This document shows, piece after piece, positions 11,426 to 54,204 of a stretch of 64,000 nt of DNA. The notes below the pieces were generated by a model. That model saw only the letters and a program-made list of their open reading frames with translations, searched no databases and was not told the DNA's origin. The number at the start of each line of letters is the position of its first letter. Position 1 is the first letter of the stretch. This DNA comes from Otis tarda. Lineage: Eukaryota > Chordata > Aves > Otidiformes > Otididae. The translations under genes were made by a program, and so were the position numbers. Location: assembly GCA_026413225.1 (NCBI GenBank), contig CM048553.1, positions 135,066,190 to 135,130,189 on the forward strand, written 5' to 3'.

Positions 11426-11983
11426 TGTTGTGGTTTAGCCGTGGTCACCACACAGTTGCTCACCCCCTCTCCCCCTCCCCAGTGGGATGGGGGGGAGAAT
11501 TGGGAAGAAAGGAAAACTCATGGGTTGAGATGAAGACAGTTTACTAGAATCGCAAAGGAAAATGACAATAATAACAAAATATAGGGATACTAAAATATGC
11601 AAAATTAACAACGCATATTTTCTCACCACCCAACATCCCAATGACTGATACAGCCTGTCCCAAGCAGTGACCACGGAAAACAAGCAAAGGAGCAAGAGAG
11701 CAATGCCCCCCTGGCCAGCCCCCACTTATATACTGAGTATAATGTTTATGGCATGGAATAATCTCTTGGCCAGTCTGGGTCAACTGTTCTGGCTATACCC
11801 CTCCCAGCTTCCTGCACCTGCACATTAGCAAAACCTGGGAAGCCGGACAGCGTCCTTGGTCGCTTAGCAACAACTCCCACTATCAGGGTGTTTATCAACA
11901 TTCTTCACCAAATCCCATACTAACTCCAAAACATGGTGGCTACTGAGAGGAAAATTAGCTTCATCCCAGCCGAAACTGGGACG
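11426..11983 (-). mobile_element. Solo LTR, ERV-L-like family A, minus strand, TSD CTAGC
   Basis: Read on the minus strand, this 558-bp segment follows the same order as the solo LTR at 27755 and the provirus LTRs. It has a start with CAGTTTCGGCTGGGATG, a CCTCTCAGTAG block, a TATATAAG box, GGGACAGGC, and a terminus GGCTAAACCACAACA. The flanks carry a perfect 5-bp duplication, CTAGC, at 11421-11425 and 11984-11988. The first base pair of the LTR looks mutated (CG on the plus strand where CA is expected), so the TG end is lost. No internal proviral sequence remains, so this is a solo LTR left by LTR-LTR recombination. Divergence from the provirus LTR shows it is clearly older. Confidence 0.9.
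11725..11732 (-). promoter_or_regulatory. LTR TATA box (TATATAAG)
   Basis: The plus strand reads CTTATATA, that is TATATAAG on the LTR coding strand. It precedes a GTGGGGGCTG block at the same place as in the solo LTR at 27755. The provirus LTR lacks this box. Confidence 0.65.
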
Positions 11984-27754: not shown

Positions 27755-28364
27755 TGTTCTGGTTTTGGCAGGGACAGAGTTAATTTTCCTCTCAGTAGTC
27801 GGTGTGGTTTGAATTTCTTCTGTGAAGAATGTTGATAAGTACCCTGATGATATGAGTTGTTGAGACCAAGGACACTGTCCAGCTTTCCAGGTCTCACTAA
27901 TGTGCAGGTGCAGGAAGCTGGGAGAGATATAGACAGAATAGTTGACCCAAACTGGTCAAAGAGTATTCCCTGCCATAAATGTCATGTTCAGTATATAAGT
28001 GGGGGCTGCCCATGGAGAGGGCATCTTCTTCCACCTCTCTCTTGCTCGCTGGCATCATTCCGTCTACTTTGCTAGCTCCCTTTCATTCCTTTGCTTGCTG
28101 CTCGGTTTCGTTTCTGTGATGGCTGCTCGGGACGGGCTGTATTGGTCATTGGGATATCGGGTGGCGAGAAATCGTGTATTGTTCATTTTGTATCTTTTAG
28201 TATCCTTATATGTTGTTATTATTTTCATTTTCTTTTGCTATTCTAGTAAACTCTCTTCATCTCAGTCCCCGAGTTTTCCTTTCTTCCCAATTCTCTCCCC
28301 CATCGTGCTGGAGATGGGGAGGGTGAGCGAGCAACTGTGTGGTGACCAGGGCTAAACCACAACA
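27755..28364 (+). mobile_element. Solo LTR, ERV-L-like family A, TSD CCTTC
   Basis: The element starts TGTTCTGGTTTTGGCAGGGA and ends GGGCTAAACCACAACA. It is flanked by a perfect 5-bp duplication, CCTTC, at 27750-27754 and 28365-28369. Length is 610 bp. It is co-linear with the provirus LTRs: CCTCTCAGTAG, GAAGAATGTTGATAA, a pyrimidine-rich stretch with TTTGCTTGCTGCTCGGTTT, GGGACGGGCTGTAT, and a U5 with CCAATTCTCTCCCCC and GGGGAGGGTGAGCGAG. Unlike the provirus it keeps TATATAAG at 27992. It has clear substitutions relative to the provirus LTR, so it is an older insertion of the same family. Confidence 0.94.
27992..27999 (+). promoter_or_regulatory. LTR TATA box (TATATAAG)
   Basis: It lies 237 bp into the LTR, directly before GTGGGGGCTGCC, and is shared with the minus-strand solo LTR at 11426. 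Transcription would be expected to start about 25-30 bp downstream. Confidence 0.7.
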
Positions 28365-44170: not shown

Positions 44171-44175
44171 CAGGT
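44171..44175 (+). repeat. Target-site duplication CAGGT (left)
   Basis: CAGGT immediately precedes the TG of the 5' LTR and is repeated at 51182-51186 after the CA of the 3' LTR. A 5-bp duplication fits ERV-L/spuma-like integrases. Confidence 0.95.
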
Positions 44176-44795
44176 TGTCCTGGTTTTGGCAGGGATGGAG
44201 TTAACTTTCCTCTCAGTAGCTGGTATGTTTTGGATTTCGTGTGTGAAGAATGTTGATAAACACCCTGATGATACCAGTTGTTGTGAATGAGACCAAGGAC
44301 ACCGTCCTGCTTTCCAAGTCTCGCTAATTTGCAGATACAGGAAGCTGGGAGAAAGACAGACAGGATAATTGACCCAAACTGGCCAAAGAGAGTATTCCAT
44401 GCCATAAACGTCATGCTCATGGGGGCAGGCAAGGGTGGGTATCTGCCTTCCTGGCATCCATCTTTCCTGCTCGTTTTGCTGGCATCGTTCCCTCTACCTT
44501 GCTGGCTCCCTTTTGCTCCTTTGCTTGCTGCTCGGTTTTGTTTCCGTGATCGCTGCTCGGGACGGGCTGTATCGGTCATTGGGACATCGGGTGGTGAGAA
44601 AACACATATTGTTCACTTTGTATATTTTTAATATCCTTATATTCTGTTATTATTGTAGTTTTCCCTTTTTATTTTAGTAAATTATCTTTATCTCAACCCA
44701 CGAGTTCTCCTTCCTTCCCAATTCTCTCCCCCACCCGCCTGGGGAGGGGGAGGGTGAGCGAGAAACTGTGTAGTGATTCGGGCTAAACCATCACA
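44176..44795 (+). mobile_element. 5' LTR of the provirus
   Basis: 620 bp, starting TGTCCTGGTTTTGGCAGGGA and ending GGGCTAAACCATCACA. It matches the 3' LTR at 50562-51181 base for base by eye. Compared with the solo LTRs of the same family it lacks the segment holding TATATAAG (expected after TCATGCTCA at 44419) and has extra sequence just downstream. A variant poly(A) signal AGTAAA lies near 44677, and U5 carries a C-run/G-run hairpin around 44725-44755. Frames of about 80-137 codons in it are non-coding shadows that recur in the other LTR. Confidence 0.95.
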
Positions 44796-44802
44796 GTCTT
44801 TT

Positions 44803-44820
44803 TGGCGCCCAACGTGGGGC
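44803..44820 (+). promoter_or_regulatory. Primer binding site, tRNA-Lys1,2 type
   Basis: TGGCGCCCAACGTGGGGC is the 18-base complement of the 3' end of tRNA-Lys1,2, as used by spumaviruses, visna virus and MMTV-like viruses. It starts 7 bases after the LTR end (spacer GTCTTTT), a longer gap than the usual 1-3 bases. It would prime minus-strand DNA synthesis. Confidence 0.9.
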
Positions 44821-44830
44821 TCGAAAGGTT

Positions 44831-44838
44831 GAGGTAAG
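44831..44838 (+). promoter_or_regulatory. Possible splice donor in the leader
   Basis: GAG|GTAAGG matches the donor consensus and lies between the primer site and gag, where retroviruses place their major donor. No env follows, so its use is unclear. Confidence 0.4.
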
Positions 44839-44907
44839 GAGAGGTCTGACTAGCGTGTGTTAAAGTTGTTACAAGTGCTCATTATTTTATTTGAATCCCT
44901 GGTCACA

Positions 44908-46950
44908 ATGTTGTACTACGTGTTCACATGGTTGTGTTATGTCTGTTCTAAGTTGCATCACATATTTCCTTTGATGCTGTTTATCACTTCCCGGAAATGG
45001 ATGAGAATTCTCATTTTGATTTACTGGGCACTACTGGCTTATGATATGGTATCATCACTGGTCATGAAATTAATCTGGTCCTTGTTTTCGGCATTGCTGG
45101 CAACTCCGTACTTTGGATGCCATTTGGTAAGAATTATTAATAATCACACATTTTTCTTTTTCTCCCCGGAGAACCAATCTATGGGGAAGTCAGAGGAGGG
45201 TACCTTCCCCTACTCCTTTACCTTCCCTTTTTCTTTTGAGCTAGTCACATCAGCTCTTGGGAATTTTGAATATCCTTGGGATGTGCAAGCCAGCATACTC
45301 CTATTGCTCTGTGTCCTAAATGGGTTTCAGATGTTGTTTAGGATTAAACAACTATTTACAAAATTCACCCGGAGATCTACCTTGAGGTTGGAGGGGCAGG
45401 GGTGGCATGGTGTGTGGGAGAAGATGGGCAGGTACCTAGAGAACTTCTCACCTCCAATGGTCTGGAACTTCACTCCTGAACAACTACAGAATCCTGATGA
45501 AGTGATCGAATATTTGAAAGAAAAATGCCATGGCTATTCTAAAGAGGCAAAGCTTACTGCTTTGTGCTGGGCACTGGCTAGTATCTACCAAACACTGCTT
45601 AACGTGCAGCACCCTCAGGAAGAAGGGAGAAAAAATCAACCGACCCATACCATGGCTGCTCCAGCCCCGGCTACCGGTCCTGCGGCTGCTCCAGCCCCAG
45701 CTACCGGTCCTGCGGCTGCTCCAGCCCCAGCTACCGGCCCTGTGGCTACTTCAGCCCCAGCTACCGGCCCTGTGGCTACTCCAACTCTAGTTACTGGCAC
45801 TGCAGCTGAATCAGAGAACCAACCTGTGTCAGTATCAGTCGCCCCTGTACAGAAGAAGAAATCTTGGAAGCGAAAGTCAGCTCGTTTAGTAAGGGATGAG
45901 GAAAAACCAGGACCATCACGAACAGAAGAGGAAGAAGAGGAACTTATGAGAGAGGAACTCGTAAGAGAGGAACTCATAAATGAGACTGAAACCACCCGAT
46001 CCCTATCCCTGAATGAGTTGCGAGACATACGAAAAGATTTTGGCCGCCGTCCAGGCGAGCACTTTCTCACCTGGCTGCTTCGATGCTGGGATAATGGGGC
46101 CAGTAGCCTGGAATTAGAAGGTAAGGAAGCTAAACAGCTGGGATCCCTTTCTAGGGAAGCAGGCATTGACAAAGTGATTGGAAGAGGTGCACAAGCTCTC
46201 AGCCTCTGGAGGCGACTCCTGTCAAGTATGAAGGAAAGATATCCCTTTAAGGAAGATATTACTTATCATCCAGGCAAGTGGACCACCATAGAGAGAGGTA
46301 TCCAGTACCTAAGGGAATTAGCTGTGCTGGAAACCATTTATAGTGACCTAGACAGTGAGGAGTCACCCCAAGATCCAGATGAAGTCCGGTGCACACGGCT
46401 CATGTGGCGGAAGTTTCTACGGAGTGTACCATCATCGTATGCCAATTCATTGGCAATTATGCTCTGGAAAGAGGGAGAGGGACCAACAATAGATGAATTG
46501 GCTACTCAGCTCCGGCAATATGAAGACACTCTCTCTTCTTCCCTTGTTTCAGCTGTGGAGAAACTATCTCGGGAGGTCCAGCAGTTAAAAGAAGATAGGT
46601 CCTACTCCCCGCCCATACAGAGCAGTATTTCAGCTATTAGGAGTAAACGTTTCCCTGCTCAAGAGAGACGGTACACACGGCGAGGTATCCTGTGGTTTAC
46701 CTTGCGTGACCGAGGAGAGGACATGAGAAAGTGGGATGGGAAACCTACCTCAGACCTAGAGGCACGGGTACGTGAGCTGCAGGGAAAAACATTTGCAAAC
46801 AGAGGTTCTCCCCGGAAAACTGCTGCTCCAGTCTCCAGTGGACAGTTCCCCAGACGGAATAGAAGGGCTGATCTTACCTACGATCCTATGGAAGGGAATT
46901 CTAATTCATATTCACAGGAAGTGAGCGACGAATATTATGAACAGGATTAG
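44908..46950 (+). CDS. gag: Gag polyprotein of ERV-L provirus, with N-terminal membrane segments
   Basis: Gag is the structural polyprotein that would assemble particles. I place the start at ATG 44908 (A at -3), giving 680 residues. The frame opens from 44854, but the only earlier start-like codon is GTG at 44857. Residues 1-27, 32-43 and 46-66 are strongly hydrophobic (for example ILILIYWALLAY), with another segment near 129-144 (SILLLLCVLNGFQMLF). Residues about 250-299 hold five 10-residue Pro/Ala/Thr-rich repeats. A basic patch (about 316-329) and a glutamate-rich run (about 340-356) follow. The capsid region from about 365 contains TWLLRCWDNGASSLELEG and TTIERGIQYLRELAVLETIY, typical of ERV-L. 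The Arg-rich C-terminus has no CCHC zinc knuckle, as in ERV-L and spumaviruses. Mouse MuERV-L Gag particles form at the endoplasmic reticulum, and the N-terminal segments make the same likely here. The frame ends at UAG 46948, in phase with pol. Confidence 0.93.
   Translation: MLYYVFTWLCYVCSKLHHIFPLMLFITSRKWMRILILIYWALLAYDMVSSLVMKLIWSLFSALLATPYFGCHLVRIINNHTFFFFSPENQSMGKSEEGTFPYSFTFPFSFELVTSALGNFEYPWDVQASILLLLCVLNGFQMLFRIKQLFTKFTRRSTLRLEGQGWHGVWEKMGRYLENFSPPMVWNFTPEQLQNPDEVIEYLKEKCHGYSKEAKLTALCWALASIYQTLLNVQHPQEEGRKNQPTHTMAAPAPATGPAAAPAPATGPAAAPAPATGPVATSAPATGPVATPTLVTGTAAESENQPVSVSVAPVQKKKSWKRKSARLVRDEEKPGPSRTEEEEEELMREELVREELINETETTRSLSLNELRDIRKDFGRRPGEHFLTWLLRCWDNGASSLELEGKEAKQLGSLSREAGIDKVIGRGAQALSLWRRLLSSMKERYPFKEDITYHPGKWTTIERGIQYLRELAVLETIYSDLDSEESPQDPDEVRCTRLMWRKFLRSVPSSYANSLAIMLWKEGEGPTIDELATQLRQYEDTLSSSLVSAVEKLSREVQQLKEDRSYSPPIQSSISAIRSKRFPAQERRYTRRGILWFTLRDRGEDMRKWDGKPTSDLEARVRELQGKTFANRGSPRKTAAPVSSGQFPRRNRRADLTYDPMEGNSNSYSQEVSDEYYEQD
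45655..45804 (+). repeat. Five 30-bp tandem repeats inside gag
   Basis: Units start at 45655, 45685, 45715, 45745 and 45775. The first three differ by only a few bases and the last two progressively more. Each encodes an AAPAPATGPA-like decapeptide. Repeat number could change by slippage without breaking the frame. Confidence 0.95.
46948..46950 (+). promoter_or_regulatory. Gag-pol UAG, probable readthrough stop
   Basis: Gag ends in a single UAG, and the frame stays open downstream for 1061 codons in the same phase. The next bases are AGGGGCCCTGCCTCC, a GC-rich stretch that could pair with downstream sequence. This is the gammaretroviral layout, where UAG is misread as an amino acid in a few percent of passages. 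No -1 slippery heptamer is needed. Confidence 0.8.
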
Positions 46951-49900
46951 AGGGGCCCTGCCTCCAGCCAGGCGGAGGAGAGGGACAACAGAGTTTATTG
47001 GACTGTATGGATTAAATGGCCTGGCACATCAGATCCACAAGAGTATAAGGCTCTAGTAGACACTGGCGCACAGTGTACCCTAATGCCATCAAGACATAAA
47101 GGGACAGAACCCATTTGTATTTCTGGAGTGACAGGAGGATCCCAAGAGCTGACTGTGTTGGAGGCTGAAGTAAGTTTGACTGGAAATGAGTGGCAAAAGC
47201 ACCCCATAGTGACTGGCCCAGATGCTCCCTGCATTCTTGGTATAGATTACCTCAGGAGTGGGTATTTCAAAGACCCAAGAGGGTATCGGTGGGCTTTTGG
47301 TATAGCCGCTGTGGAGACAGAGGAGAATAAACAGCTGGCCACCTTGCCCAAGCTCTCAAAGGACCCTTCTGTTGTGGGATTACTGAAGGTTGAGGAACAA
47401 CAGGTACCAATTGCTACCACCACAGTGCACCGGCGGCAATACCGCACCAACCGAGACTCCATAATACCCATCCTCAAGTTGATTCGTCGACTGGAGAGCC
47501 AGGGAGTGATCAGCAAGTCCCACTCACCCTTTAACAGTCCCATATGGCCAGTGAGAAAATCTAATGGAGAGTGGAGGTTAACAGTGGACTATCGTGGCCT
47601 AAATGAAGTTACGCCACCGCTGAGTGCTGCCGTGCCAGATATGCTAGAGCTTCAGTATGAACTGGAGTCAAAAGCAGCCAAGTGGTATGCCACCATTGAT
47701 ATTGCCAATGCCTTCTTCTCCATCCCTTTGGCACCAGAATGCAGGCCACAGTTTGCTTTCACTTGGAGGGGTGTTCAGTACACCTGGAATCGATTGCCCC
47801 AGGGGTGGAAACACAGCCCCACCATTTGCCATGGACTCATCCAGACTGTATTAGAAAAGGGTGGAGCTCCAGAGCACCTGCAGTACATTGATGACATCAT
47901 CGTATGGGGCAACACAGCAGCAGAAGTTTTTGAAAAAGGGGAGAAAATAATACAAATCCTTCTGAAAGCCGGTTTTGCCATAAAACAAAGCAAAGTCAAG
48001 GGGCCTGCACAAGAGATCCAGTTTTTAGGAGTAAAATGGCAAGATGGACGTCGTCACATTCCAATGGACGTGGTCAACAAAATAACAGCTATGGCTCCAC
48101 CAACGAACAAAAAGGAAACACAGGCTTTCTTGGGCGTTGTGGGTTTCTGGAGAATGCATATTCCAAATTACAGTATGATTGTAAGCCCTCTCTATGAAGT
48201 GACTCGAAAGAGGAACGATTTTAAATGGGGCCCTGAACAACGACAAGCCTTTGAACAAATTAAACAGGAGATTGTTCATGCAGTAGCCCTTGGGCCAGTC
48301 CGGACAGGACAAGATGTGAAAAATATCCTCTACACCGCAGCCGGGGAGAATGGCCCTACCTGGAGTCTTTGGCAAAGAACACCAGGGGAGACTCGAGGTC
48401 GACCCCTGGGCTTTTGGAGCCGGGGATATAGAGGTTCTGAGGCCTGCTACACTCCAACTGAAAAAGAAATACTGGCAGCATATGAAGGAGTTCGAGCTGC
48501 TTCAGAAGTGATTGGTACTGAAGCACAGCTCCTCCTGGCACCGCGACTGCCAGTGCTAGGCTGGATGTTCAAAGGGAAGATCCCCTCTACACATCATGCA
48601 ACTGACGCCACGTGGAGTAAATGGGTCGCACTGATCACACAGCGAGCTCGAATAGGAAACCCTAATCGCCCAGGAATCTTAGAAGTAATCACAGATTGGC
48701 CAGAAGGCAAAGATTTTGGAATGCCACCAGAGGAGGAGGTGACACGTGCTGAAGAAGCCCCACCATATAATAATTTACCAGAAGATGAGAAGAGATATGC
48801 CCTGTTCACTGATGGGTCCTGTCGTATTGTAGGAAAACATCGGAAGTGGAAAGCTGCTGTGTGGAGTCCTACACGACGAGTTGCAGAAGCTACTGACGGC
48901 CAAGGTGAATCAAGTCAGTTTGCAGAGGTGAAGGCCATCCAGTTGGCTTTAGACATCGCTGAACGGGAAAAATGGCCAAAACTCTATCTCTACACCGACT
49001 CATGGATGGTGGCAAACGCTCTGTGGGGGTGGTTAAAGCAGTGGAAACAGAGCAACTGGCAGCGTAGAGGCAAGCCCATCTGGGCTGCCGCATTGTGGCA
49101 AGATATTGCTGCTCGGCTAGAGAATCTGGTTGTAAAAGTACGTCACGTAGATGCCCACGTACCCAAGAGTCGAGCCACGGAAGAACACCAAAATAACCAA
49201 AGGGTGGATCAGGTTGCTAAGATTAAAGTTTCCCAAGTGGACCTAGACTGGCAACACAGAAGTGAACTATTTTTAGCTCGGTGGGCTCATGACACCTCGG
49301 GCCATCAAGGAAGAGATGCAACATACAAATGGGCTCGTGATCGAGGGGTGGACTTGACCATGGATACTATTGCACAGGTTATCCATGACTGTGAAACATG
49401 CGCTGCAATTAAGCAGGCCAAGCGGTTAAAGCCTCTTTGGTATGGAGGACGATGGCTGAAGTATAAGTATGGAGAAGCTTGGCAAATTGATTACATCACA
49501 CTCCCACAAACCCGTCAAGGTAAGCGCCATGTGCTTACAATGGTGGAAGCTACCACTGGGTGGCTAGAGACTTATCCCGTACCCCATGCTACTGCCCGGA
49601 ACACCATCTTGGGCCTTGAAAAGCAAGTTCTCTGGCGACATGGTACTCCAGAAAGAATTGAGTCAGACAACGGGACTCATTTCCGAAACAATCTCATAGA
49701 CACCTGGGCCAAAGAGCATGGCATTGAGTGGGTATATCACATCCCCTATCATGCACCAGCCTCTGGAAAAATTGAACGGTACAATGGACTGCTGAAAACT
49801 ACACTGAAAGCAATGGGTGGTGGGACCTTCAAAAACTGGGATAAACATTTAGCAAAAGCTACCTGGTTAGTTAACACTCGGGGATCCACCAATCGAGCTG

Positions 49901-50136
49901 GCCCTGCCCAGTCAGAACTGTTACATACTGTAGAGGGTGATAAAGTCCCTGTGGTGCATCTAAGGAATATGTTAGGAAAGACGGTCTGGGTTATTCCTCC
50001 CCTGGGCAAAGGCAAACCCACCCGTGGGATTGCTTTTGCTCAAGGACCTGGATGTACTTGGTGGGTGATGCGGGAGGATGGGGAAGTTCGATGTGTACCT
50101 CAAGGAGATCTGATTTTAGGTGAGAACAGCCAATAA
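46951..50136 (+). CDS. pol: Pol polyprotein: protease, reverse transcriptase, RNase H, integrase
   Basis: The 1061-codon frame follows the gag UAG without a shift; the first ATG (47083) lies after the protease active site, so independent initiation there would lose it. Residue numbers count from 46951. The aspartic protease has LVDTGAQ (Asp37). The reverse transcriptase has LTVDYRGLNE, LPQGWKHSP and the catalytic YIDD at 312-315. RNase H has all four acidic residues: D621 in TDGS, E659 in FAEVKA, D683 in YTDSW and D753 in RVDQVA. The integrase has the zinc set H780, H785, C814, C817 and the DD35E triad D847, D906, E942, followed by a C-terminal DNA-binding-type region. I see no missing catalytic residue and no premature stop. 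The protein would process Gag, copy the RNA and insert the DNA. No dUTPase or env follows. Confidence 0.95.
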   Translation, partial: RGPASSQAEERDNRVYWTVWIKWPGTSDPQEYKALVDTGAQCTLMPSRHKGTEPICISGVTGGSQELTVLEAEVSLTGNEWQKHPIVTGPDAPCILGIDYLRSGYFKDPRGYRWAFGIAAVETEENKQLATLPKLSKDPSVVGLLKVEEQQVPIATTTVHRRQYRTNRDSIIPILKLIRRLESQGVISKSHSPFNSPIWPVRKSNGEWRLTVDYRGLNEVTPPLSAAVPDMLELQYELESKAAKWYATIDIANAFFSIPLAPECRPQFAFTWRGVQYTWNRLPQGWKHSPTICHGLIQTVLEKGGAPEHLQYIDDIIVWGNTAAEVFEKGEKIIQILLKAGFAIKQSKVKGPAQEIQFLGVKWQDGRRHIPMDVVNKITAMAPPTNKKETQAFLGVVGFWRMHIPNYSMIVSPLYEVTRKRNDFKWGPEQRQAFEQIKQEIVHAVALGPVRTGQDVKNILYTAAGENGPTWSLWQRTPGETRGRPLGFWSRGYRGSEACYTPTEKEILAAYEGVRAASEVIGTEAQLLLAPRLPVLGWMFKGKIPSTHHATDATWSKWVALITQRARIGNPNRPGILEVITDWPEGKDFGMPPEEEVTRAEEAPPYNNLPEDEKRYALFTDGSCRIVGKHRKWKAAVWSPTRRVAEATDGQGESSQFAEVKAIQLALDIAEREKWPKLYLYTDSWMVANALWGWLKQWKQSNWQRRGKPIWAAALWQDIAARLENLVVKVRHVDAHVPKSRATEEHQNNQRVDQVAKIKVSQVDLDWQHRSELFLARWAHDTSGHQGRDATYKWARDRGVDLTMDTIAQVIHDCETCAAIKQAKRLKPLWYGGRWLKYKYGEAWQIDYITLPQTRQGKRHVLTMVEATTGWLETYPVPHATARNTILGLEKQVLWRHGTPERIESDNGTHFRNNLIDTWAKEHGIEWVYHIPYHAPASGKIERYNGLLKTTLKAMGGGTFKNWDKHLAKATWLVNTRGSTNRAGPAQSELLHTVEGDKVPVVHLRNMLGKTVWVIPPLGKGKPTRGIAFAQGPGCTWWVMREDGEVRCVPQGDLILGENSQ

Positions 50137-50494
50137 TTTGAACTGTATATAATCATTTCTATAGTTCTTACATGTCATATCAAAGGTATTGCACCCTGAT
50201 CAGTGAAGAATGAGCTTCAATAAAACCAAGAGAGATGCAACAATGATGGAACAGGAACTGGCACCCAGCAATTTCCTCAAGATCAACATCTTCAACTTGT
50301 AGACCATGGACATGATACACCACCCACGCTAGATGCACCAACTGCGAGTTCCAGATGCAGCATGCAACAGCCCCATACTACATACCATCTCTCTTGTCCT
50401 GAAAGACTGTTATGACAGATGCAACCCAAAGTCATGGACTAAATGAACTCAACAGACTTTGGAGGGATAGCCCATAGATTGAAGGAGTTACATC

Positions 50495-50530
50495 TGTGTG
50501 TGTGTATATATATGTATATGTATATGCATG
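50495..50530 (+). repeat. (TG)n/(TA)n dinucleotide tract
   Basis: A short TG run passes into TATATATGTATATG. It lies inside the provirus just upstream of the 3' LTR and would be prone to length change between copies. Confidence 0.8.
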
Positions 50531-50543
50531 ACGTAGATGGTAT

Positions 50544-50558
50544 GGAATAAGGGGTGGA
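50544..50558 (+). promoter_or_regulatory. Candidate polypurine tract
   Basis: GGAATAAGGGGTGGA ends 3 bases before the 3' LTR. It is interrupted by two T residues, so it is a weak tract. It is the only purine-rich stretch in the expected place for priming plus-strand DNA. Confidence 0.55.
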
Positions 50559-50561
50559 TAC

Positions 50562-51181
50562 TGTCCTGGTTTTGGCAGGGATGGAGTTAACTTTCCTCTC
50601 AGTAGCTGGTATGTTTTGGATTTCGTGTGTGAAGAATGTTGATAAACACCCTGATGATACCAGTTGTTGTGAATGAGACCAAGGACACCGTCCTGCTTTC
50701 CAAGTCTCGCTAATTTGCAGATACAGGAAGCTGGGAGAAAGACAGACAGGATAATTGACCCAAACTGGCCAAAGAGAGTATTCCATGCCATAAACGTCAT
50801 GCTCATGGGGGCAGGCAAGGGTGGGTATCTGCCTTCCTGGCATCCATCTTTCCTGCTCGTTTTGCTGGCATCGTTCCCTCTACCTTGCTGGCTCCCTTTT
50901 GCTCCTTTGCTTGCTGCTCGGTTTTGTTTCCGTGATCGCTGCTCGGGACGGGCTGTATCGGTCATTGGGACATCGGGTGGTGAGAAAACACATATTGTTC
51001 ACTTTGTATATTTTTAATATCCTTATATTCTGTTATTATTGTAGTTTTCCCTTTTTATTTTAGTAAATTATCTTTATCTCAACCCACGAGTTCTCCTTCC
51101 TTCCCAATTCTCTCCCCCACCCGCCTGGGGAGGGGGAGGGTGAGCGAGAAACTGTGTAGTGATTCGGGCTAAACCATCACA
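50562..51181 (+). mobile_element. 3' LTR of the provirus
   Basis: 620 bp, TGTCCTGG...CCATCACA, and no difference from the 5' LTR by eye. It provides the poly(A) site for proviral RNA (variant AGTAAA near 51063) and is followed by the CAGGT duplication. Confidence 0.95.
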
Positions 51182-51186
51182 CAGGT
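51182..51186 (+). repeat. Target-site duplication CAGGT (right)
   Basis: Second copy of the 5-bp duplication. It directly abuts the CA end of the 3' LTR. Confidence 0.95.
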
Positions 51187-51985
51187 GACAAAATTTGTTA
51201 AATTATTTGAGTACTTTAGGCAGGCTATTTTGGTCATCTCTGCTACCACATAAATTAAATAAAAAAGAATGCAAATAACCAGCCAGTACTGCATAGTTGT
51301 TACATTAGTAGAGCAGCTGGATGCAAAATTAAAGTCCTCATAAACAAGAGGAATTATTGTTGTTATGCTACAGTATAAGACTTGAATAAGAGTTTAAAAG
51401 TAGCATTCATTTTCTTGATTAAAGATTAACAAGGTTAAGTATCTAATTGGTATTTTAACTGGATAGGAAGGAGAGAAATTCTGCAGTTGGGAGTGGAATG
51501 GATGTTTTTGGAACATGAGAACACAGTTCTTTGTCTAACTTAAAATTAAATAGCTAACTCAAATTGCATTTGTTTGGGAACATATTGGTCTAGATTTAGG
51601 AATACAGGTGATCTGATAAAAGTGTATTTTGATTCCTACCTTTGTTTCTGTCTCAACTGTTTTTCTGCTTCATAGACAGTAAATCTTGTGTAACTAATCT
51701 TAGAAGTTTAATGACCTTTCAAGTTTTGCTCAAAAAGTTAATGATGCTGATGTAACATTACTTCATCCATGCAATGGTGCCCTCTTAAAAGCCCTAGAAT
51801 ATCTCCTTACCTGCCAACACAATGTCTTCTCTCAATGTAGCAATACATGTTTGGACCTACATTTTTGTTCATATCTTGTCAATAATTTCCTTCTCCTGTC
51901 TGTGGTACAGGTTTTATCACTTTCCACAGACTTCCACTGCTCTACATGTATCTTTTTTTAAAATAAGCTTTTCTTCTTAAGTGCA
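51187..51985. other. Unassigned DNA between provirus and CR1
   Basis: About 800 bp of unremarkable AT-rich DNA with no gene or element end. It is likely the original host sequence on the right of the proviral target. Confidence 0.5.
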
Positions 51986-52053
51986 GGAAACTGCACAGTA
52001 AGCTCTGTGCCCTAGATTTCAGGAAGGCGGACTTCGGCCTCTTCAGGAACCTC

Positions 52054-54096
52054 ATGGGCAAAGTGCCATGGGAGGCAGCCCTGGAGGGAAGAGGGGCCCA
52101 GGAAAGTTGGTCCATATTTAAGGAGCACCTCCTCCAAGCTCAGCAGAGGTGCATCCCGATGAAGAAGAAGTCGGGCAAAAAGGCCAGGAGGCCAGCGTGG
52201 ATGAGCAAGGAGCTCCTGGACCAACTGAAAGTAAAGAAGAAAGCCTTTAGAGGGTGGAAGCGGGGACAGGTAGCCTGGGAGGACTACCGAGTGGCTGTGC
52301 GAGTGGCCAGAGATAGGCTGAGGAAGGCTAAAGCCCTGATGGAATCGAATCTGGCCAGGGATATAAAAAGTAACAAGAAAAGCTTTTACAGGTATGTAGG
52401 GGACAAAAGAAAATCCAAGGAGAATGTAGGCCCCCTCCAGAAGGTAACAGGTGTCGTGGTTACCCGGGATGTGGAGAAGGCTGAGGTACTCAATGACTTT
52501 TTTGCCTCAGTCTTCACTGATAAGGGCTCTTGTCTCCCCACCCAAGATGTGGAAGGCACAGGCAGGGACTGTGAGGATGAAGAACCGCCCACAGTGCTCG
52601 AAGAGCAGGTTCAGGACCATCTAAGGAACTTGAAGGTGCACAAGTCCATGGGGCCTGATGAGATCCATCCGCGCGTCCTGAGGGAACTGGCGGATGAAGT
52701 TGCCAAGCCACTGGCCATCATATTTGAGAAATCGTGGAGGTCTGGTGAGGTCCCCGATGACTGGAAGAGAGGGAACATAACCCCCATTTTTAAAAAGGGG
52801 AGTAAGGAAGACCCGGGCAACTACAGGCCGGTCAGCCTCACCTCTGTGCCTGGCAAGGTCATGGAGCAGATTCTCCTGGAAACCATGCTAAGGCACATGG
52901 AGAGCAAGGAGGTGGTTGGTGACAGCCAACATGGCTTCACCAAGGGCAGATCGTGCCTGACCAATTTGGTGGCCTTTTATGACGGGGTAACAGCATCGGT
53001 GGACAAGGGACGGGCAACGGATATCGTCTACCTGGACTTGTGCAAAGCTTTTGACACTGTCCCGCATGACATCCTTCTCTCTAAACTAGAGAGGCATGGG
53101 TTTGATGGATGGACCACTCAGTGGATAAGGAGTTGGCTGGATGGCCGCACTCAGAGAGTGGTGGTCAACGGCTCAATGTCCAAGTGGAGACCGGTCACCA
53201 GTGGCGTCCCTCAGGGGTCTGTGTTGGGCCCGGCCCTGTTCAACATCTTTGTCGGCGACATGGACAGTGGGATAGAGTGCACCCTTAGCAAGTTCACCAA
53301 TGACACCAAGCTGTGTGGTGCCGTCGACTCGCTGGAAGGGAGGGATGCCATCCAGAGGGACCTGGACAGGCTGGAGAGGTGGGCCCGTGCCAACCTCATG
53401 AAGTTCAACCAGGCCAAGTGCAAGGTCCTGCACCTGGGTCATGGCAATCCCAGGCACAAATACAGGCTGGGCAGAGAATGGATTGAGAGCAGCCCTGAGG
53501 AGAAAGACTTGGGAGTGCTGGTAGACGAGAGGCTCAACATGAGCGGGCAATGCGCCCTTGCGGCCCAGAAGGCCAACCGCATCCTGGGCTGCATCAAGAG
53601 GAGCGTGGCCAGCAGGTCGAGGGAGGTGATTCTGCCCCTCTACTCTGCCCTGGTGAGACCCCACCTGGAGTACTGTGTCCAGTTCTGGAGCCCCCAACAC
53701 AAGAAGGACATGGACCAGTTGGAAAGGGTCCAGAGGAGGGCCACCAAGATGATCAGAGGGCTGGAGCACCTCTCCTATGAGGACAGGCTGAGAGAGTTGG
53801 GGCTGTTCAGCCTGGAGAAGAGGAGGCTCCGGGGAGACCTGATAGCAGTCTTCCAATACCTCAAGGGGGCCTACAGGAAAGATGGGGAGAAGCTGTTCAG
53901 TAGGGCCTGTTGTGATAGGACAAGGGGTAATGGGTTTAAATTAGAAGGAGGTAGGTTTAGATTAGATATTAGAAAAAAATTTTTTACAATGAGAGTTGTA
54001 GAGCACTGGAACAGGTTGCCCAGAGCGGTGGTGGATGCCCCATCCCTGGAAATGTTCAAGGCCAGGCTGGATGAGGCTCTGAGCAACCTGATCTAG
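52054..54096 (+). CDS. CR1 ORF2 fragment: reverse transcriptase, 680 codons, altered catalytic motif
   Basis: This is the C-terminal part of the CR1 ORF2 protein. The frame is open from about 51970 and 52054 is only its first ATG, so no natural start is implied. Recognisable parts in order are a basic linker ([13 protein letters not shown]), [18 protein letters not shown], the fingers motif [16 protein letters not shown], motif [14 protein letters not shown] with Asp328, motif [15 protein letters not shown], and motif C at residues 414-417. It finishes with the conserved LINE C-terminal region ([36 protein letters not shown]). Motif C reads F-T-N-D: the first of the two catalytic aspartates expected in F/Y-x-D-D is Asn (AAT at 53299). 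Without an endonuclease and with this change, autonomous activity is very unlikely. It should not be annotated as a host gene. Confidence 0.88.
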
Positions 54097-54167: not shown

Positions 54168-54204
54168 ATTCTATGATTCTATGATTCTATGATTCTATGA
54201 TTCT
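54168..54204 (+). repeat. CR1 3' tail microsatellite (ATTCTATG)n
   Basis: Four full 8-bp units plus ATTCT. This tail is characteristic of avian CR1 and marks the 3' end of the insertion. Confidence 0.96.

What the first reader, a model, noticed from the sequence alone, without database searches (positions are those of the whole stretch)
44176..51181. Apparently intact, very young ERV-L provirus
The two 620-bp LTRs show no difference by eye, CAGGT duplications are perfect, gag and pol have no internal stop except the gag-pol UAG, and every catalytic residue I checked is present. If the neutral rate is near 2e-9 per site per year (assumed), one LTR difference is expected about every 0.4 million years. 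That would make the insertion under roughly a million years old, and it could be polymorphic or still active. Most ERV-L lineages in well-known genomes are old and broken.
Basis: partly seen in the sequence, partly recalled or inferred. Interest (0 to 1): 0.8.

Follow-up and report, generated by a model that had tools for sequence, protein, structure and literature searches.

The report
Young, intact bird endogenous retrovirus
The window holds a complete, recently inserted retrovirus-like element of a bird group known to be recently active; it belongs to the foamy-virus-like class but is not a textbook ERV-L, and its coat protein appears built to sit in an internal cell membrane.

Summary
At 44176-51181 lies a 7,006-bp provirus: LTRs identical 620/620, perfect CAGGT duplications, gag and pol open in one frame split by a single UAG, checked catalytic residues present, no env. 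Zero LTR differences give a 95% upper age of 1.0-1.2 My at 2.0-2.3e-9 per site per year, 2.0 My at 1.2e-9. 'Polymorphic or active' is untested: the own-genome search did not complete (11 tries).

'ERV-L' is right only loosely. Pol motif spacing matches class III, but the primer site is tRNA-Lys1,2 (the foamy-virus site), not tRNA-Leu, and no dUTPase is found. Closest described element: songbird TguERVL2, recently active, with two same-frame ORFs.

Gag starts with a hydrophobic region carrying a kept glycosylation sequon (9 of 12 aligned Gags), suggesting ER-anchored, IAP-like assembly. And Gags of this family are joined in frame, at shared boundaries, to AMFR in parrots and owls and to USP4 in hawks and barn owl, in public gene models.

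New member of a known kind.

The parts
44171..44175 (.). target-site duplication CAGGT, left
44176..44795 (+). 5' LTR, 620 bp, TG...CA ends
44796..44802 (+). 7-nt linker between LTR and PBS (MuERV-L has a 5-nt linker)
44803..44820 (+). primer binding site, 18/18 to tRNA-Lys1,2 as printed in PMC1084362; first 17 nt as printed for the human foamy virus PBS in PMC3386198
44908..46950 (+). gag, 680 aa, ends with UAG
   Evidence: homologues
44908..45342 (+). N-terminal hydrophobic region of Gag (residues 1-145); 19-residue windows at 34-52 and 126-144 exceed 1.6 on the Kyte-Doolittle scale
   Evidence: helices in the low-confidence model
45142..45150 (+). N-glycosylation sequon N79-H-T, column kept in 9 of 12 aligned Gags
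45654..45808 (+). 30-bp tandem repeat x5.2 coding an A/P/T-rich stretch of Gag
45958..46542 (+). most conserved long Gag block (residues 351-545, mean 67% identity to 11 relatives); capsid-like at best
   Evidence: (weak)
46948..46950 (+). gag UAG; pol continues in the same frame
46951..50136 (+). pol (protease, RT, RNase H, integrase), ends with TAA
47059..47067 (+). protease DTG; the first Met codon of the pol frame (47083) lies downstream of it
47884..47895 (+). RT YIDD
49288..49401 (+). integrase zinc motif HX4HX28CX2C
49489..49776 (+). integrase catalytic triad DX58DX35E
50137..50561 (+). 425-nt stretch between pol stop and 3' LTR; no + strand ORF of 80 aa or more within it, so no env; purine-rich tract near 50545-50558 (by eye)
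50562..51181 (+). 3' LTR, identical to 5' LTR
51182..51186 (.). target-site duplication CAGGT, right

Best explanation
A recent insertion (most likely under about 1-2 My) of an env-less class III (spuma/ERV-L-related) endogenous retrovirus of the avian TguERVL-like group, which amplifies as an intracellular retrotransposon. Proposed cycle: the LTR drives a full-length RNA; Gag is translated from 44908, and a minority of ribosomes read through the UAG to give Gag-Pol; Gag's N-terminal hydrophobic region inserts into the ER membrane with a short glycosylated loop in the lumen and the capsid part in the cytosol, so particles assemble on or bud into the ER as in IAP; tRNA-Lys1,2 primes reverse transcription; integrase joins the DNA with 5-bp duplications. 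SHOWN by sequence: intact LTRs, TSD, ORFs, motifs, PBS, absence of env. INFERRED: readthrough, ER insertion, glycosylation, particle site, age and any present activity.
For: Anatomy. Class III: DYRGLN-X66-G, YIDD, HX4HX28CX2C and DX58DX35E equal the XtERV-S column of Table 2 in PMC8278194, and the last three equal its ERV-L column; RT profile best PDB hit is Pr125Pol (a spumavirus Pol; label recalled), 183.5 bits, versus 174.7 for the best MLV-type RT (label recalled) (single sequence 169 versus 156); IN best hit is PFV integrase (MLV integrase core may be missing from the PDB set). Readthrough: same frame, and the protease DTG (47059) lies upstream of the first Met codon of the pol frame (47083), so initiation there would lose the protease active site. 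TM Gag: 12 of 12 aligned Gags have at least one hydrophobic 19-mer in the N-terminal region; in the wider set 31 of 37 Gag-block proteins with more than 100 residues upstream of that block have at least one and 27 of 37 at least two. Sequon column 79 in 9 of 12; next best column 4 of 12; any sequon in the region expected in 4.4 of 12 by shuffling, seen in 9. Positive-inside pattern: 6 K/R in residues 145-165, 6 D/E in the loop 76-125. MuERV-L, also env-less class III, is reported to form particles in the ER (PMC5930517 passage). Related family recently active in songbirds.
Against: Both AlphaFold models are poor (mean pLDDT 48.7 and 55.8), so ER topology and capsid fold are not confirmed. RNA downstream of the UAG folds no better than shuffles (z -0.46 and -1.08). 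No TATAWA motif in this LTR, while two older relatives in the window have one each, and no AATAAA in the LTR: transcription is not assured. The sequon column is absent from the 3 most divergent of the 12 Gags, and related rows are not independent. The RT margin over MLV-type RT is modest. Zero LTR differences could also come from gene conversion or an assembly collapse. Copy number unknown.
Confidence: 0.8

Rival explanations
1. It is an older insertion whose LTRs were homogenised by gene conversion, or whose two LTRs were collapsed in assembly.
For: LTR identity alone cannot exclude it; no reads or second assembly could be examined; own-genome search unanswered.
Against: TSDs are perfect and the outer flanks differ; gag and pol are also free of disabling changes, with a modelled ORF half-life of 0.44 My at 2e-9 and an assumed indel rate of 0.1 of substitutions, independent of the LTRs.
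Confidence: 0.12
2. Gag starts not at 44908 but at a later Met (residue 92 or 173), so the hydrophobic stretch is a leader and not part of the protein; Gag is then an ordinary cytosolic Gag.
For: Residue 92 begins MGKSEEG and residue 173 MGRYLEN; N-terminal identity is low (31% mean for residues 1-110); MLV makes an extra glycosylated Gag from an upstream start (recalled).
Against: Those Mets stand in only 2 of 12 and 5 of 12 aligned Gags, against 11 of 12 for the first Met (the first column may partly reflect end alignment); hydrophobicity (12 of 12) and a sequon (9 of 12) persist despite low identity; T excess is at codon positions 1 and 2 (0.43, 0.46) rather than 3 (0.29).
Confidence: 0.2
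3. A true spumavirus (foamy virus) endogenisation rather than an ERV-L-type class III element.
For: PBS identical over 17 nt to that of human foamy virus; RT and IN best PDB hits are spumaviral; the foamy column of Table 2 also has DX58DX35E.
Against: Pol is in the gag frame behind a stop, whereas foamy pol has its own start in another frame (PMC8278194 passage); IN zinc spacing is HX4HX28 as in ERV-L, not the foamy HX3HX29, and RT is YIDD, not YVDD; no room for env or accessory genes.
Confidence: 0.07

Closest known systems
TguERVL2 / TguERVL2_I_Ucy (songbird ERVL-superfamily element; PMC6523648, section 13 read)
   Same: Two long ORFs in one frame; protease domain predicted partly outside ORF bounds (as here: DTG before the first Met of pol); AP, RT, RH, IN; no intact env; recent activity; bird hosts; solo LTRs common (two related ones in this window).
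   Different: 6.4 kb pseudo full-length versus 7.0 kb. The RT here lies outside the passerine group in the tree. DNA identity to the Repbase consensus could not be tested. The paper section read does not mention TM segments, the PBS or a readthrough stop.
MuERV-L / ERV-L (mouse; PMC5930517 passages; Table 2 of PMC8278194)
   Same: Class III, env-less, YIDD, HX4HX28CX2C, DX58DX35E, 5-nt target duplication, a linker between LTR and PBS, recent activity; particles in the ER are reported for MuERV-L.
   Different: MuERV-L uses tRNA-Leu and ERV-L carries a dUTPase; here tRNA-Lys1,2 and no dUTPase found. Linker 7 nt versus 5 nt. Whether MuERV-L Gag has N-terminal hydrophobic segments was not tested.
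XtERV-S (Xenopus class III ERV; PMC8278194 sections 5 and 7 read; passages)
   Same: Gag and pol in one frame split by a stop; DYRGLN-X66-G; no CCHC in Gag; identical LTRs.
   Different: XtERV-S has env, dUTPase and a Ser PBS, a TGA stop, and polybasic regions in Gag rather than a reported hydrophobic N-terminus.
Mouse IAP (recalled; SRP bringing IAP Gag to the ER membrane is mentioned in a passage of PMC3945221)
   Same: Env-less (recalled), ER-directed Gag.
   Different: IAP is class II (recalled); here class III, so any likeness would be convergent; ER targeting here is predicted only.

Membership tests
Class III (ERV-L/spuma-related) ERV | RT/IN motif spacing of class III (YIDD, HX4HX28CX2C, DX58DX35E) | tested here: met
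   against Table 2 of PMC8278194
Class III (ERV-L/spuma-related) ERV | RT nearest to spumavirus | tested here: met
   Pr125Pol 183.5 bits, MLV-type 174.7; margin modest; no tree with outgroups was made
Class III (ERV-L/spuma-related) ERV | 5-bp target-site duplication | tested here: met
   (CAGGT); solo-LTR relatives: CCTTC and GCTAG if the LTR's first base is taken as changed, otherwise 6 bp
ERV-L sensu stricto | tRNA-Leu primer site | tested here: not met
   PBS is tRNA-Lys1,2, 18/18
ERV-L sensu stricto | dUTPase downstream of integrase | tested here: not met
   no dUTPase in Pfam at E 0.01 over three pol pieces; pol ends 119 codons after the DDE glutamate
ERV-L sensu stricto | no env; gag and pol in one frame | tested here: met
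Avian TguERVL group | two long same-frame ORFs, protease partly outside ORF, bird relatives | tested here: met
Avian TguERVL group | DNA identity to TguERVL consensus | not testable with these tools
   no bird DNA collection or Repbase on hand
Spumavirus | separate pol start in another frame, env and accessory genes | tested here: not met
   pol in gag frame behind UAG; only 425 nt after pol
IAP-like ER-budding element (works like) | ER-targeting N-terminus of Gag | tested here: inconclusive
   hydropathy and sequon support it; structure models poor
Retroviral Gag | capsid fold | tested here: inconclusive

The most novel reading that the evidence does not exclude
Bird class III ERVs carry a Gag that is a glycosylated multi-pass ER membrane protein, and birds have at least twice turned the cytosolic part of this Gag into a host protein by splicing it onto ubiquitin-pathway genes: onto the ER-anchored RING-CUE half of the E3 ligase AMFR in an ancestor of parrots and owls, and onto the DUSP-UBL half of the deubiquitinase USP4 in an ancestor of hawks and barn owl. 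The chimeras would work as Gag-binding restriction factors at the site where the element assembles, an avian counterpart of Fv1 and TRIMCyp (both recalled).
Probability: 0.3. Interest if true: 0.8.

Novelty: new member of a known kind. Interest (0 to 1): 0.45.

Why it matters
A near-zero-age, intact env-less class III element in a bird is a direct marker for recent ERV movement and could be scored as presence/absence in individuals. More broadly, the family shows a Gag architecture (hydrophobic, sequon-bearing N-terminus) that would suit life without env, and its Gag appears joined to AMFR and USP4 in gene models of several bird orders, which would make a bird version of capsid-derived restriction directly testable.

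Tried and rejected

Rows dropped: of the 120 Gag hits listed, 11 were aligned with the window's Gag for A1, chosen for long coverage; 28 for A2; 65 for A4. For the pol alignment 16 of the 120 listed hits (1,242 in all) were used. In one search, 41 Gag pieces were cut and 2 shorter than 150 residues were left out of the tree. In one search, 162 Gag-hit proteins were held, 106 had the anchor block, 42 had more than 100 residues upstream, and 5 of these (P0009, P0015, P0027, P0031, P0102) were set aside as host fusions or oddities, leaving 37. Six of the 37 had no hydrophobic segment (P0046, P0252, P0253, P0258, P0265, P0267); five of these six carry pol Pfam domains and look like joined gene models. 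One of the 31 positives (P0263) is also a pol-joined model, so the count is approximate.

No claim of absence from print is made for the TM Gag either: the searches that touched it were (listings only).

Full report
WHAT IS THERE. The window's 44176-51181 is a complete provirus. The two 620-bp LTRs are identical, start TG and end CA, and are flanked by CAGGT on both sides. Inside are a primer binding site at 44803-44820 after a 7-nt linker, a 680-aa gag ORF from 44908 to a UAG at 46948-46950, and pol in the same frame to TAA at 50134. Pfam finds protease (below cut-off), RVT_1, RT_RNaseH_2, RNase_H, Integrase_H2C2 (just below cut-off) and rve. Only 425 nt lie between pol and the 3' LTR, with no + strand ORF of 80 aa, hence no env.

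AGE. No difference in 620 bp per LTR gives, at 2e-9 per site per year, one expected difference per 0.40 My and a 95% upper bound of 1.21 My; at the collared flycatcher rate 2.3e-9 (quoted in PMC8564624, passage) 1.05 My; at an assumed slow 1.2e-9, 2.0 My. Under simple assumptions the open gag and pol have a half-life of 0.44 My at 2e-9, which agrees. Gene conversion or collapsed assembly cannot be excluded from the window alone.

CLASS. Spacing of the RT and IN motifs (DYRGLN-X66-G, YIDD, HX4HX28CX2C, DX58DX35E) equals the XtERV-S column in Table 2 of PMC8278194, and for the last three the ERV-L column. The foamy column shares DX58DX35E but has YVDD and HX3HX29; the MLV column has YVDD, HX3HX32 and DX56DX35E. 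RT profile: Pr125Pol (spumavirus; label recalled) 183.5 bits, MLV-type 174.7. IN: PFV. So class III. But the PBS is tRNA-Lys1,2 (18/18 to the string in PMC1084362, passage; the same 17 nt as human foamy virus in PMC3386198, passage), and there is no dUTPase in Pfam. By the Leu primer that names the group (recalled) and by the dUTPase it is not an ERV-L proper.

RELATIVES. RT relatives: 1,242 proteins at E 0.001, 120 shown. Sixteen aligned ones (parrot, ibis, pigeon, crane, duck, two shorebird-order species, eagle, two owls, five passerine sequences and one unnamed ena record) are 79-90% identical over the RT piece, whereas the 11 aligned Gags are 39-68% identical. In the midpoint-rooted RT tree the five passerine sequences form one group (support 1.0) and the window sits outside it, beside the two owls (0.915), with weak support deeper down, so the host is probably not a passerine (inference). 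TguERVL2 of songbirds has the same two same-frame ORFs and was recently active and vertically inherited in the songbirds compared (PMC6523648 section 13); that section also notes hits with a similar pol but dissimilar gag. The window also holds two older solo LTRs about 80% identical: 27755-28364 with CCTTC on both sides, and 11426-11983 on the minus strand with GCTAG on both sides if its first base is taken as changed. Each has one TATAWA motif; the young LTR has none. So intact ORFs do not by themselves show activity.

EXPRESSION. Pol is in the gag frame behind one UAG. The protease DTG (47059) precedes the first Met of the pol frame (47083), so simple initiation there would lose the protease active site; readthrough is the economical reading. 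A downstream RNA structure is not detectable above shuffles.

A SIDE FINDING. Among the Gag hits are public host-gene models. AMFR isoforms of two parrots (Lathamus, Pezoporus) and three owls (Strix, Bubo, Athene) run to the same point of AMFR and continue into about 400 residues of this Gag family to its C-terminal end (a second Strix model, P0091, was not in the alignment). In the two scanned, that point lies after the CUE domain. USP4 isoforms of Buteo, Accipiter and Tyto continue into Gag from about residue 147, just after the hydrophobic part; in the two scanned, DUSP and a ubiquitin-like domain precede it. In a tree of 39 Gag pieces the three USP4-joined Gags group together (0.943) and the AMFR-joined ones group together (0.875), apart from the free Gags sampled, as single ancestral captures would predict; the second value is modest. 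AMFR-joined Gag parts are 56-61% identical between parrots and owls and 83-96% among owls, against 95-96% and 98-99% for the last 350 residues of the AMFR part; USP4-joined Gag parts are 79% identical between hawks and Tyto and 94% between the hawks, against 89% and 99% for the USP4 part. So the Gag part changes much faster than the host part. Single-species joins also occur (a CTD phosphatase in a penguin, P0111; an RRM protein in Accipiter, P0102), so joined models can be artefacts; shared boundaries across orders argue against that for AMFR and USP4. No junction reads, DNA or dN/dS could be examined, and no paper search was left.

VERDICT. It is a new member of a known bird group rather than a surprise. 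The label ERV-L needs the two corrections above. The more interesting leads are the membrane Gag and the host-gene joins.

Noticed in passing
proteins P0073, P0074, P0087, P0091, P0095, P0100 (AMFR) and P0015, P0027, P0031 (USP4): Public bird gene models join AMFR (parrots, owls) and USP4 (hawks, barn owl) in frame to Gag of this ERV family at boundaries shared between bird orders; each set groups together in a Gag tree.
   Followed up: partly
window 51967-54093 + and 54168-54204: A 709-codon stop-to-stop open frame with an RVT_1 domain (Pfam E 1.9e-33) and an (ATTCTATG)4.6 tandem repeat just downstream; looks like a 5'-truncated CR1 LINE (label recalled), 786 bp from the provirus.
   Followed up: partly
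window 27755-28364 + and 11426-11983 -: Two older solo LTRs related to the provirus LTR (about 80%), with short flanking duplications (CCTTC; GCTAG); each has a TATAWA motif the young LTR lacks.
   Followed up: partly
window 44796-44802: A 7-nt linker separates LTR and PBS; PMC5930517 (passage) calls such separation, 5 nt in MuERV-L, uncommon in exogenous retroviruses.
   Followed up: no
window 45654-45808: 30-bp tandem repeat in gag, in a stretch whose length varies among relatives; possibly the stretch that gave the 'Marek_A' hit in TguERVL2 Gag (PMC6523648; inference).
   Followed up: no
P0269: A record labelled Klebsiella pneumoniae encodes a Gag of this family (51% to P0120 over 52%), probably bird DNA contamination.
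   Followed up: no
P0014, P0019, P0021, P0023, P0028 (Grus japonensis): Gag proteins named 'ubiquitin carboxyl-terminal hydrolase 4' by a source, with no Pfam domain listed: a name probably copied from the USP4-Gag models.
   Followed up: no
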